Shown here: positions 34,601-43,600 of the stretch, in pieces
Numbering within the stretch: position 1 is the first letter of the stretch
How the letters are laid out: the number at the start of each line of letters is the position of its first letter
Source of the DNA: Glandiceps talaboti
Taxonomy: Eukaryota > Hemichordata > Enteropneusta > Spengelidae
Direction of reading: 5' to 3'
NCBI RefSeq assembly: GCF_964340395.1
Contig: NC_135549.1
Location: 4,194,501 to 4,258,500, forward strand
DNA: 64,000 nt
Position numbers and translations under genes: made by a program
Notes under the pieces: generated by a model
The model's database searches: none
What the model was told of the DNA's origin: nothing
The model's input: the letters and a program-made list of their open reading frames with translations, nothing else

Positions 34601-37600
34601 GACTCTTGGATTTTGGATTACTGACATAGACTCCAAGAAATATAACAATGCACAAGATGACTTCCTACATGATACCAACAAATCAGAAACCTTTGGTTTT
34701 TCCTTTGATGTGCTTCAAGATATCCCTATAGTTAAACTTGAATGGAAAAAGATCACTTCTGAGTGTATGGAAAACACACTTCACAAACTCAACGCATCAA
34801 ATATCAGAATTCTTGTGTTAAAAGACATATCCAAATCCATCACTGCTATCACAAACACTACTTTGATGGGATTACAGGCTAGCTTGATTGAAGAATTGAA
34901 CTTATCAAACAACGGTCTACAAACCTTGCCATCTAATGGATTTGTGTGGTTACAAAATTTGAAGACTCTAGTCATCAGCTACAATGACTTGAAATCAATC
35001 CCTTCCAATGCATTTGAAGGTTTGAATAATTTAACTACTCTAATTTTACAAGGTAACCTATTGTTAGACTTTTCAGAGGTGATGATTTGTGTCAACAGAC
35101 TTACAAAACTAACACACCTCTCCATTGGTCAAAATAACCTGCATGGAGATATCCCATCTTTTATATTTCCTACTCTTGATTCTCTTACAAGTTTACGTCT
35201 GTATAGCAATAAATTTACTACAGTTCATCAAGACAGTTTCACACTTTTGTCAAAACTAGAACTTTTGGACTTGTCTAGAAACTTATTGTATGTACTTCAT
35301 CCAGACAGTTTCACATCCTTAACAAAACTAGAATTCTTATATTTGTCTCACAATGTAATTTACCAGCCACCTCATGCAGTATTTTCACATCTGATTTCTC
35401 TTAAAGTACTTCATTTAGAAGGTAATCACCTTGGCAGTAAAAACTTTATACCTGATTATCATAGTTTCATGAATTTAACAAAGCTAACAGTATTATGGTT
35501 AACATTCCCATTTACTAACATTGATTTCCTATATTTGGAGGACATGCCATCTCTTCAAGAACTTCACATCAATAGTAATGTTCCCTACTTTGTCACTGGG
35601 CGTGATGGTGTATTACCAATCAAGTCCATCAGTAGTTTCAATACGTTGCAAAGTGCAAACCTGTCCAAACTAAAAATTCTCCACATTGAATACAGTTATC
35701 TTGACCCCATAGATACAGAATTACTTCCTTTCAATTCTGTGAAAAAACTTAGGTTACATAAATTTAGTTTAGGTTACAGTGCTACTCAACAGGATATGAA
35801 AAAGTTGTTAGAATTATTCCCAAATGTGGAAACTCTGTCAGTTAGTGAGTTTGAGGCCTCAGCAGATCTTAATTTCCTACCTGACACACTACAGTACTTG
35901 AATTTATTGGAGATATTTGACAATCAAATATCACAAATGAACACTGACATTCTCAAATCCTATCCACAGCTCAGAGTCCTTGATGTAAGTCACAGTGCAT
36001 TTGATTGTTCACGGTGTCATGCAAAGGACTTTGTTGACTGGATGGAAAAAGATAAAACTATTGAATTATTGGGACGTGGTAATTATGTATGCGTTACCCC
36101 TTCAGACAAATCTGGAACACTACTTTTCAACTTGACTTTTGGTTTAGAATGTAATTTAGCCTTTATGGTGTCCATGCCAATCACATGTTTTCTTGTTACT
36201 GTGTTTTTAACTGTCACTCTTTGTATCCGTTTCCATTGGCATATACGTTACTTGATTTTCATGATCAAACTGAAACGTGGTGGCTACCAGCTTCAAGTCA
36301 ATGATGATGAGGACCAGCCACTCAATAAGAAATATGATGCATTTGTTGTCTACAATCAACATGACAGACCTTGGGTTATGCAACAATTAGTTCAGAATTT
36401 AGAAAATATTGATCCACCAAATTTCAAACTTTGTATTCATGATCGTGACTTCATCGGTGGAACTGACATTTTTGACAACATTCTTGACAGCATAGAGAAT
36501 AGTCACAAAACTATGTTGATATTGTCACCTCACTTTGCAGAAAGTGAGTGGTGTTATTTTGAGATGAGAATGGCTCAAGATCATTTATTTACAGAAAAGA
36601 GAGATGTCATATTATTAGTGTTATTACAGGAAATCCCTGATAATGTAATGCCGAGAGTTTTACGTAAAATATTAAAAACAAAGAGTTGTATAAAATGGAC
36701 TGATAATGAAGTTGGCAGAAGGCTATTCTGGAAGAAATTGAAATTTGAACTAGAGTCTGGCAATAGAGTAAACAGAGTGGCTAATATCTAATATATATAT
36801 ATATACCTGGTAGTTTATAGTAATATTTTACAACATAAACTGGTATATATATACCTGGTAGTTAATTCATAGTAATATTTTACAACATACATATGACACT
36901 TTTTTATGACTTCATTAATGTTCTGATACTTGTACAACTTTATGCCTTTATATTGATGACTAGTAAATAAACCACCTAAATCTTTACATAATATAATCTA
37001 TGTTGTAATTTTTGAATTGAATGCTACACTACTTACTGAATGCTATGTGTGTGTTTTAATGAATTCAACAGAAAGTACACTGTATTTCACTAACACAAGG
37101 TAATACTGGTAGAATCGACTTGACTCATTCTAGTACATTAAACAACTCAGATTGAACTAAGAATGGCATGAGTAGTTGTATTATCAAACCTGAACTAGGG
37201 AACAAAAAAGAAGCCATCTTGAATGGTGCACTGTGGGAATTATGGTAGGATTTCATTGATAAACATGAATCAATCACTGCTGCAAATAACCTAACTGTGG
37301 TTACCCAGACCCTCCAAGGATGGGGAAGCTCTCCTTCACTACATTGGGTAACACACCCAGCAGCTCTATGTATCTGAGAGAAGGTATTACTGCAACTACA
37401 AAGAACGCAACAGTTCTTCATATCAGCGAGCCTATTGAGTGTGGATTGCAAGTTGAATATTGAATGAAGAAATGGCTCAAGGCAAATACTAAATATTTGT
37501 ATCATGTACTTACATCTGGTATTGGACTAAGTAATGGCTTGAGGTAAATATTTATATCATGTACTTACATCTGGTATTGGACTAAGTAATGGCTTGAGGT

Positions 37601-40600: not shown

Positions 40601-43600
40601 ATTGGAGTAAGTAATGGCTTGAGGTAAATATTTGTATCATGTACTTACATCTGGTATTGGAGTAAGTAATGGCTTGAGGTAAATATTTGTATCATGTACT
40701 TACATCTGGTATTGGAGTAAGTAATGGCTTGAGGTAAATATTTGTATCATGTACTTACATCTGGTATTGGACTAAGTAATGGCTTGAGGTAAATATTTGT
40801 ATCATGTACTTACATCTGGTATTGGACTAAGGAATGGCTTGAGGTAAATATTTGTATCATGTACTTACATCTGGTATTGGACTAAGTAATGGCTTGAGGT
40901 AAATATTTATATCATGTACTTACATCTGGTATTGGAGTAAGTAATGGCTTGAGGTAAATATTTGTATCATGTACTTACATCTGGTATTGGAGTAAGTAAT
41001 GGCTTGAGGTAAATATTTGTATCATGTACTTACATCTGGTATTGGACTCAGGAATGGCTTGAGGTAAATATTTGTATCATGTACTTACATCTGGTATTGG
41101 ACTAAGGAATGGCTTGAGGTAAATATTTGTATCATGTACTTACACCTGGTATTGGACTAAGTAATGGCTTGAGGTAAATATTTGTATCGTGTACTTACAT
41201 CTGGTATTGGAGTAAGTAATGGCTTGAGGTAAATATTTATATCATGTACTTACATCTGGTATTGGACTAAGTAATGGCTTGAGGTAAATATTTGTATCAT
41301 GTACTTACACCTGGTATTGGACTAAGTAATGGCTTGAGGTAAATATTTGTATCGTGTACTTACATCTGGTATTGGACTAAGGAATGGCTTGAGGTAAATA
41401 TTTGTATCATGTACTTACATCTGGTATTGGACTAAGGAATGGCTTGAGGTAAATATTTGTATCATGTACTTACATCTGGTATTGGACTAAGTAATGGCTT
41501 GAGGTAAATATTTGTATCATGTACTTACATCTGGTATTGGACTAAGGAATGGCTTGAGGTAAATATTTGTATCATGTACTTACACCTGGTATTGGACTAA
41601 GTAATGGCTTGAGGTAAATATTTGTATCATGTACTTACATCTGGTATTGGACTAAGGAATGGCTTGAGGTAAATATTTGTATCATGTACTTACACCTGGT
41701 ATTGGACTAAGGAATGGCTTGAGGTAAATATTTGTGTCATGTACTTACATCTGGTATTGGACTAAGGAATGGCTTGAGGTAAATATTTGTATCATGTACT
41801 TACATCTGGTATTGGACTAAGGAATGGCTTGAGGTAAATATTTGTATCATGTACTTACACCTGGTATTGGACTAAGGAATGGCTTGAGGTAAATATTTGT
41901 ATCATGTACTTACATCTGGTATTGGACTAAGGAATGGCTTGAGGTAAATATTTGTATCATGTACTTACACCTGGTATTGGACTAAGGAATGGCTTGAGGT
42001 AAATATTTGTGTCATGTACTTACATCTGGTATTGGACTAAGGAATGGCTTGAGGTAAATATTTGTATCATGTACTTTCAATTCGTGATCTCCAAATCCAC
42101 GTGTTACACCTATTGTTGCCAGCATTCTTGATTTCTTTCCATCACCATATATCAGTGGAAATTTAGCATCTTCCTCTGTTATAGTTTTGTAGGCCCTATA
42201 GAAAAGAGAAACACTAACCATTATTATAAATATAATCAAAATTTTGAACTAGTCATGCTTTGGGTAAAATTAAGTCCAGTCAAGTAAAATATTTATATAT
42301 ACATATTATTATTGTTTGACATTGGCTAATTGTCTTCAAACTTTTTCTACACCTGTTCTGCGATCGCTGTATTTATGTACTAGTACAATACCATTATATA
42401 TACTAGATTTTACAATCACACAATATGCTTTGGAATGTAAAACAGAGTTCAACTATTGGAAAGAACTGCTGCAACTAACTGATGTATGAGGGCGCTGTTT
42501 GCCACGTCATCTTACATCCCATATGGATGAGTCACATATCACTTTGTTTCATGTTCACTCTTTGCCAATAACATGTAAAATCTTGTTATTTGTCTCTGTG
42601 CTCATTCTATTTGGCCTCTTGATCTAAATAAGGAATCACAAAATATTTGATACTAAATGTGCTATCAAACCAATCCTTACCAGCCTGTCATATGTTGGTC
42701 TCGGTACAAAATCCTTTTTCCTACATCTTTTCTGTAAATTCGTTTCTGAAACTCCATGTGTGTAAATTCATTTTCCAGCAAGAATGGTTGTTGCCATGCC
42801 AACTGTTGGAGTCTTTGCCTTTCAGAGTTTGGTGTGTGTTCTGACGACACCTCAACAACCTCTCCATTTCTGGATATGATAGCTCTGTGAAAAACACATA
42901 CAGAAATGTTACAACATGACTGAACAAAATACTACAGTGAAAATATTTGCTGTGATAATTATGATAATATGATAATCAACTATGATACTGTGAAATAGGA
43001 TTCATCGCCAAATGCCTGTTGCATCAGTTTTGATATGTCATAGGATTCTAGTAACATCTTGTCAATCATTATGTCATTGCTGTAATGCTGCCCTATGGTA
43101 AAACAACCTAATGAACAGTGTTTAACAAAGCATGTAGTTCAAATAGGCAAAACATTACTCATAGGTAACATCACTTTTGGTTGTGCTATCAGCAATTATT
43201 TGAATTTGATTGTAGAGAAAAGTCTGGTTAATCATCCCTGTCACTTAATATAGTAGCGGTAAAGTTAGCTGTTTACTGACAAAGTAAGTCAGAAAATGTA
43301 TTATTGTGAATTGTAATCTGAACAAGACATATATGTATTACTTTACCTTGAATCGCCTGCATTGACTACATACAGCTTCCCCCTCATAAAAATAGCTACT
43401 AAAGCTGTGCAACCCCCATGTATCCGATACATAGTTTTGTCATGGCCAATTTCTGCATCCTGATGAAAAAAAGAAAATATCAGTCAAAACATTCTGTACA
43501 GATATATGGATTTTTGGAATGGATTTGATTTGTTGATGTAACTGTAGAATGAATCAATAATGATGAATTACAAATGTTTTGTCACTTTTTCTACATTTTG

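What the first reader, a model, noticed from the sequence alone, without database searches (positions are those of the whole stretch)
37501..42076. Intronic satellite built from a coding exon's end plus its own splice donor, about 82 copies
Seen directly: each 55-bp unit equals the last 53 nt of phosphatase exon 6 (42024-42076) followed by GT. Since the exon segment starts with AAGT, each head-to-tail junction rebuilds GTAAGT. The array thus offers about 82 intact 5' splice sites, each behind a near-perfect copy of the exon end, immediately downstream of the true donor. Established: 5' splice site choice depends on U1 pairing and local exon context. Inference: the array could act as a splice-donor decoy or U1 sink, slow or regulate splicing of this 15.9 kb intron, or yield transcripts with premature stops (read-through adds V-S-T then stop). 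I know of no described satellite with this design.
Basis: partly seen in the sequence, partly recalled or inferred. Interest (0 to 1): 0.88.

Follow-up and report, generated by a model that had tools for sequence, protein, structure and literature searches.

The report
Splice-donor minisatellite in an acorn worm
The end of one coding exon plus its splice signal has been copied 82 times head to tail into the following intron; this is a very long example of a repeat type already described in amphioxus ('mirages'), and such repeats recur in this genome, most likely that of an acorn worm.

Summary
On the minus strand, a PPM1H-like exon end (42024-42076) is followed by 82 full 55-bp units plus a 24-nt stub; 83 GTAAGT sites (true donor plus 82) are intact and exactly 55 bp apart. 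The exon copy is ancestral; a probable decayed copy borders the far end.

It is not unique: I found 11 more apparent exon-end+donor arrays in this genome (one in the window, three in the neighbouring 194.5 kb, seven elsewhere on contig C1). Eight of the 12 genes have protein homology, one of them weak. Nor is the design undescribed: 'mirages', tandem repeats spanning exon-intron boundaries, are published for amphioxus, where RT-PCR suggested normal splicing. Human IFI6 is a second precedent.

Mitochondrial features point to an enteropneust hemichordate, not a cephalochordate.

Best reading: a young, re-amplified, mostly neutral mirage. The first-transcribed donor is used (inferred); any array donor would add V-S-T-stop. 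Nothing here supports a decoy or U1-sink role. Donor arrays adjoin coding exons more often than acceptor-like arrays (7 of 11 versus 0 of 7), a tentative and confounded asymmetry.

The parts
42024..42195 (-).
   Evidence: 57-aa translation matches PDB chains of protein phosphatase 1H (residues 296-352 of 7l4i, 331-387 of 7kpr), E 1.5e-25; sequence
42024..42076 (-). 53-nt exon end that is the source of the repeat
   Evidence: unit type A is identical to it; it encodes KPFLS as in PPM1H, while 53 of 82 units carry A instead of C at unit position 37, so the exon type is ancestral
37490..42023 (-). mirage array: 82 full 55-bp units plus a 24-nt partial unit; the GTAAGT at 42023 is the true donor, the other 82 are array donors
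37458..37488 (-). probable decayed old copy of the unit abutting the array end (24 of 31 identical, no donor left)
   Evidence: score 17; 0 of 5000 first-order Markov sequences and 0 of 5000 random 120-mers of the window reach it (maximum 16 in both); a looser alignment did not single it out
37142..37172 (-). possible second decayed copy (weak)
   Evidence: score 16, equal to the maximum of both nulls
26004..26155 (-). next PPM1H exon (VKVYDLTENEHTDNDVLVMGTDGLWD...), acceptor ..TACATCAG; intron 26156-42023 is 15,868 bp
   Evidence: read directly; assignment to PPM1H by recall, no separate search
7182..7281 (+). WD40 exon (WDR82 by recall) with donor CAG|GTAAGT
   Evidence: WD40 by PDB search and Pfam; sequence
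7215..7418 (+). second, older exon-end+donor tandem repeat in this window: about 3 copies spaced 72 and 60 bp; the first and last copies keep GTAAG, the middle one lost it

Best explanation
A mirage: a minisatellite that began as a tandem duplication crossing the exon/intron boundary of a PPM1H gene and grew by unequal exchange or replication slippage, including a recent duplication of about 25 units. It is mainly a passive by-product. The 5'-most donor is transcribed first, closes a normal-size exon (about 172 nt from its acceptor) and is used. The 82 later donors are normally removed with the intron. If one is used, the mRNA gains V-S-T-stop and is probably destroyed by nonsense-mediated decay. 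Shown: structure, exon as source, homogenisation, recurrence of the design in the genome. Supported but weaker: the older decayed copy. Inferred: the growth mechanism, donor choice, decay, near-neutrality.
For: Structure and polarity: 8 of the 10 units nearest the exon carry the exon's C at position 37 against 21 of the other 72, and that C encodes the F of KPFLS shared with PPM1H. No sign of selection on the donor hexamer: 8 variable sites of 55, none in the 6, P = 0.37. Longest open stretch in the array 33 codons. Eleven further apparent arrays of the same design: WD40, two in an IP3 receptor, C1:4191583, MAPKAPK, an IL17R-like gene, UBA3, a PLP enzyme and three unnamed genes. Published precedent with RT-PCR suggesting regular splicing, and with length instability, in amphioxus (passages).
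Against: No RNA data, so use of array donors is untested. All 83 donors share the same hexamer and nearly the same exon context, so some use of array donors is quite possible and could matter for expression. The IFI6 precedent (title and recall only) is of donors that are provided to the transcript.
Confidence: 0.85

Rival explanations
1. Regulatory donor cluster: the array competes for U1 and splicing and lowers or tunes PPM1H output through stop-containing isoforms and decay, with array length setting the dose.
For: 83 intact GTAAGT, each behind a near-copy of the exon end; any array donor gives V-S-T-stop; precedent of a minisatellite giving multiple donors to an interferon-induced transcript (title only).
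Against: No excess conservation of the donor hexamer (P = 0.37); similar arrays lie in unrelated genes; [quoted passage not shown]
Confidence: 0.1
2. U1 buffer or telescripting element: the many U1 sites protect the 15.9-kb intron from premature polyadenylation or act as a sink for U1.
For: Density of U1-complementary sites at the intron start.
Against: A sink from one gene is implausible given U1 abundance (recalled). The number of sites is a by-product of the unit, and similar arrays lie in other genes. Nothing here tests it.
Confidence: 0.03
3. Assembly artefact in length: a real shorter repeat inflated, or a real longer one collapsed, in the assembly.
For: A perfect 24-unit run at a shift of 25 units would also arise from a mis-joined haplotype. 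PMC3087553 notes a mirage that appears aberrantly assembled in a genome draft.
Against: The assembly has very long contigs (C1 35.9 Mb; 590 Mb in 47 contigs), and unit types are graded from the exon outward. The design itself is seen in other genes.
Confidence: 0.07

Closest known systems
Amphioxus 'mirages' (Adh3, Canestro et al. 2002, known here only through citing papers; globins BflGb6 and BflGb9, PMC3087553; PGBD5, PMC3902484; passages seen)
   Same: Minisatellite-like tandem copies spanning an exon-intron boundary, repeats carrying AG/GT splice signals, authentic exon copy outside the duplicates, units from 10 to 160 bp, several unrelated genes in one genome, homogenisation inside the array and distinct units at its edges.
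   Different: Host here is most likely an enteropneust hemichordate, not a cephalochordate. 82 intronic copies against 6 and 3 in the two BflGb6 haplotypes. The cases I accept here are all of the donor type, whereas amphioxus has both. No RT-PCR here.
Human IFI6 (6-16) minisatellite (Turri, Cuin and Porter 1995, title seen in reference lists only; details recalled)
   Same: A minisatellite at an exon end that supplies many splice donors to one transcript.
   Different: Short 12-bp unit (recalled), interferon-induced gene, vertebrate; the title says that the donors are provided to the transcript.
Intron gain by tandem duplication carrying AG/GT proto-splice sites (Rogers model, as cited in PMC3087553)
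   Same: Tandem duplication over exon sequence with splice signals.
   Different: Here no new intron is seen; the copies stay inside the existing intron.

Membership tests
mirage (exon-intron boundary minisatellite) | tandem repeat whose unit spans an exon-intron boundary | tested here: met
   53 exon nt + GT(AAGT) at 55-bp spacing
mirage (exon-intron boundary minisatellite) | authentic exon copy kept at the edge, other copies intronic | tested here: met
   exon intact and homologous to PPM1H, reading continues in phase into the next exon at 26155
mirage (exon-intron boundary minisatellite) | many repeats carry splice signals | tested here: met
   83 GTAAGT at 55-bp spacing, none lost in 82 units
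mirage (exon-intron boundary minisatellite) | concerted turnover inside, edges excluded | tested here: met
   24-unit exact run at shift 25; exon-type position 37 in 8 of the 10 exon-side units against 21 of the other 72; probable decayed copy at the far edge
mirage (exon-intron boundary minisatellite) | recurs in several genes of the genome | tested here: met
   12 apparent arrays in all; 8 genes with protein homology, of which the IL17R-like one is weak (23.5 bits, cut-off 26) and mostly in the preceding exon; 4 rest on open frame and splice sites
mirage (exon-intron boundary minisatellite) | length polymorphism between alleles and in soma | not testable with these tools
   one assembly only
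mirage (exon-intron boundary minisatellite) | regular splicing not disturbed | not testable with these tools
   no RNA data
functional multi-donor minisatellite (IFI6-like) | minisatellite at an exon end with a donor in the repeats | tested here: met
functional multi-donor minisatellite (IFI6-like) | array donors are used in mRNA | not testable with these tools
   no RNA data; the only indirect test, excess conservation of GTAAGT, was negative (P = 0.37)

The most novel reading that the evidence does not exclude
Exon-end+donor mirages are a pervasive feature of this acorn-worm genome, not a cephalochordate curiosity. They survive almost only at donors, because splicing commits to the first-transcribed site: at a donor array the true site comes first, at an acceptor array it comes last. 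The arrays would then be a natural record of 'first donor wins' splicing and a standing source of new introns.
Probability: 0.35. Interest if true: 0.65.

Novelty: new member of a known kind. Interest (0 to 1): 0.45.

Why it matters
It extends mirages beyond cephalochordates, as far as the searches here show, and gives an extreme natural test of 5' splice-site choice: one exon end followed by 82 near-identical copies with the same donor hexamer. If only the first is used, donor strength and local exon context cannot be what decides. The recurrence also supplies raw material for intron gain and a warning for gene prediction and short-read assembly in such genomes.

Tried and rejected
Species as cephalochordate: rejected on mtDNA. 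In 9 protein genes read (atp6, atp8, nad4L and nad6 not counted), codon AAA is absent in 7 and totals 3, in the cob and nad5 frames, which were cut loosely from stop to stop. ATA sits at several sites that I recall as conserved Ile (e.g. MP-MIGGFGNWL, PTG-KIFSW). ARAGORN gives tRNA-Lys with anticodon CUU between cox2 and atp8 (and a weaker UUU prediction on the other strand inside nad5). GC is 53%. Table 3 of PMC3121625 gives Balanoglossus AUA=Ile, AAA and AGG missing, CUU; Saccoglossus AAA=Lys, UUU; Cephalochordata AUA=Met, AAA=Lys, UUU. Against a close fit: AGG occurs 5 times in my loose frames, and cob lies after atp6 here, unlike the nd5-cob order reported for Balanoglossus and Saccoglossus. 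So the genus is not settled. The GFP family and mollusc haemocyanin gave no match, but those tests are weak: neither rang in any control genome.

Selection on donors: tested, no sign. Protein from the array: longest open stretch 33 codons.

Far-edge copies: a loose local alignment did not make the tail stand out (18 of 2000 random 400-mers scored as high, and the best match lay elsewhere); a stricter one over 120 nt did. I rely on the second and on its position directly at the array end.

Acceptor-type arrays: TTTTACAG tandem patterns exceed their reversed control by 3.7 times (1839 against 499 matches, gaps 47-77 only). That is no less than for the donor octamer (2.0 times, 2431 against 1190, gaps 47-77; 3.3 times, 2274 against 689, gaps 77-107), so motif enrichment alone does not favour donors. 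All these counts are of overlapping matches, not arrays. I examined the 7 acceptor arrays listed on C1 and not those listed on C2: 0 of 7 adjoin a coding exon. The contrast with donors (7 of 11; Fisher P 0.013) is confounded: AGGTAAGT is a more specific splice motif than TTTTACAG, gap ranges differ, and I called exons by eye knowing the idea. In the 258.5 kb I saw 5 donor and no convincing acceptor arrays (binomial P 0.06). The published amphioxus cases include an acceptor type.

Breakpoint always at +6: considered because PPM1H, WD40 and one IP3-receptor array restart right after GTAAG(T); dropped, since the other units carry about 8 to 81 intron nt. In one search the script aligned a later copy in 5 of 11 cases, so those lengths were read by eye.
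Full report
What is there. On the minus strand a PPM1H-like exon ends at 42024 with GAT and the donor GTAAGT at 42023. Its 57 codons match PDB chains of protein phosphatase 1H (E 1.5e-25). The next exon starts at 26155 after TACATCAG. Directly behind the exon comes a 55-bp array of 82 full units and a 24-nt stub, 37490-42023. All 83 GTAAGT sites, counting the true one, are intact and all 82 spacings are 55. Read-through gives V-S-T-stop.

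Origin and age. Eight of 55 positions vary and no variant is carried by a single unit. There are 12 unit types, the commonest (23 of 82) identical to the exon end; mean identity to the exon is 97.8%. Eight of the ten units nearest the exon carry the exon's C at position 37, against 21 of the other 72. That C encodes the F of KPFLS shared with PPM1H, so the exon is the source. Units 24-47 recur exactly 25 units later (longest run 24; at most 8 in 200 shuffles of the order): a recent segmental step, or an assembly join. Just past the array, 37458-37488 matches the unit at 24 of 31 positions, a score reached by 0 of 5000 first-order Markov sequences and 0 of 5000 random stretches of the window; a looser alignment did not single it out. 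I read it as the remnant of an older round.

No sign of donor selection. With 8 variable sites among 55, none in the six donor positions is expected with P = 0.37. Intact donors follow from youth and homogenisation. The longest open frame in the array is 33 codons.

Not alone. The window holds a second case: a WD40 exon (WDR82 by recall; WD40) whose end plus GTAAG is repeated, about three copies in all at 7215-7418, diverged, with the middle donor lost. In the adjoining 194.5 kb I found three more: two in IP3 receptor exons, probably of one gene (E 1.9e-22 and 2.2e-13; arrays), and one at C1:4191583-4192681 whose exon rests on splice sites and an open frame only. TRF rows of period 25 or more merge to 43 arrays in the 258.5 kb, so at least 5 of 43 are of this kind; I looked closely only at those with repeated splice-like motifs or a suggestive unit, not at the flanks of all 43. 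The window was chosen for the feature, the other 194.5 kb was not.

Genome sample. A pattern of three AGGTAAGT with gaps of 47-77 or 77-107 gave 11 arrays on contig C1 among the listed places (only the first places are listed). In 7 of 11 the first copy is the end of an apparent coding exon: MAPKAPK2/3 (E 1.4e-28), an IL17R-like gene (Pfam 4.8e-5, below the family cut-off and mostly in the preceding exon), UBA3 (E 6.4e-27), a PLP-dependent enzyme (Pfam 8.3e-14, two exons joined) and three exons known only by open frame and splice sites (L036, L037, L039). In 4 of 11 (L029, L030, L031, L035) I saw none by eye. Exon parts of the units run from about 12 to 81 nt, intron parts from 2 to about 81 (partly by eye). 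For comparison, 0 of 7 C1 arrays with TTTTACAG adjoin a coding exon (those listed on C2 were not examined). The difference (P 0.013) is suggestive only: the two motifs differ in specificity, I judged the exons by eye, and the acceptor motif is itself as enriched in tandem over its reversed control (3.7 times) as the donor motif (2.0 and 3.3 times).

Which animal. COX1 lies on contig C40, a concatemer of a 15.4-kb mtDNA. AAA is absent from cox1, cox2, cox3 and nad1-4, ATA stands at sites I recall as conserved Ile, a tRNA-Lys with anticodon CUU lies between cox2 and atp8, and GC is 53%. Table 3 of PMC3121625 gives AUA=Ile, AAA missing and CUU for Balanoglossus and a different set for cephalochordates (passages read). 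PMC2697986 agrees on ATA and AAA (passages read). The genome is therefore most likely an enteropneust hemichordate. Not fitting: the gene order (cob after atp6) differs from the orders described there, and AGG, missing in Balanoglossus, occurs 5 times in my loosely cut frames.

Known kind. PMC3087553 (passages) describes 'mirages': minisatellite-like tandem duplications of exon-intron boundaries in amphioxus Adh3 and globins, many repeats with AG/GT signals, RT-PCR suggesting undisturbed splicing, length and somatic instability, and a model for intron gain. PMC3902484 (one passage) adds PGBD5 and cites troponin C. The 1995 IFI6 paper is known to me by title in reference lists and recall; it is not held, nor is the 2002 Adh paper. 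The array meets every mirage feature testable here. Searches for mirages elsewhere were limited to the held library: 'hemichordate'+'minisatellite'+'intron' gave one paper, the amphioxus PGBD5 one; a search on 'mirages' with amphioxus terms listed three papers, including the two above. I found no report in hemichordates by these searches.

How it most likely works. The donor that is made first, closes a normal exon and is bound first should win; the later donors leave with the intron. This is inference, backed by the amphioxus RT-PCR. A donor duplication is then nearly harmless. An acceptor duplication puts a false acceptor before the true one and should be selected against, which would explain the tentative donor excess.

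Noticed in passing
window 7182-7418 (+): Second exon-end+donor tandem repeat in the same window, older and partly decayed, in a WD40 (WDR82-like) gene.
   Followed up: yes
G000:C1:4022543-4022913 (L011) and 4032556-4032705 (L012): Two further exon-end+donor repeats at IP3 receptor exons, probably of one gene.
   Followed up: yes
window 28564-31551 and 33732-36791 (+): Two single-frame LRR-TIR (Toll-like receptor type) ORFs of 995 and 1019 aa nested on the opposite strand inside the same PPM1H intron; their C-terminal TIR regions look nearly identical by eye, suggesting recent duplication or conversion (Pfam TIR and LRR).
   Followed up: partly
C1:4000001-4258500: The palindrome TACATGTA occurs 101 times against 8.1 expected from base composition.
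   Followed up: no
G000:C1:4061247-4067454 (L015): A 38-bp array of 163 copies (6.2 kb) with units 97% alike; no exon link looked for in detail.
   Followed up: no
G000:C40: mtDNA of about 15.4 kb held as a tandem concatemer; codon AAA nearly absent, cob between atp6 and cox3, an order that differs from the enteropneust orders described in the passages seen.
   Followed up: partly
L035 (C1:1678500-1679300), positions about 275-560: A tRNA-derived, SINE-like element by eye (tRNA-like head, GGGTACTCCGGTTTCCTCC block, ATT tail) just before a donor-containing array.
   Followed up: no
window 37142-37172 (-): A weak second match to the 55-bp unit about 320 bp beyond the array end, possibly an even older copy.
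   Followed up: partly
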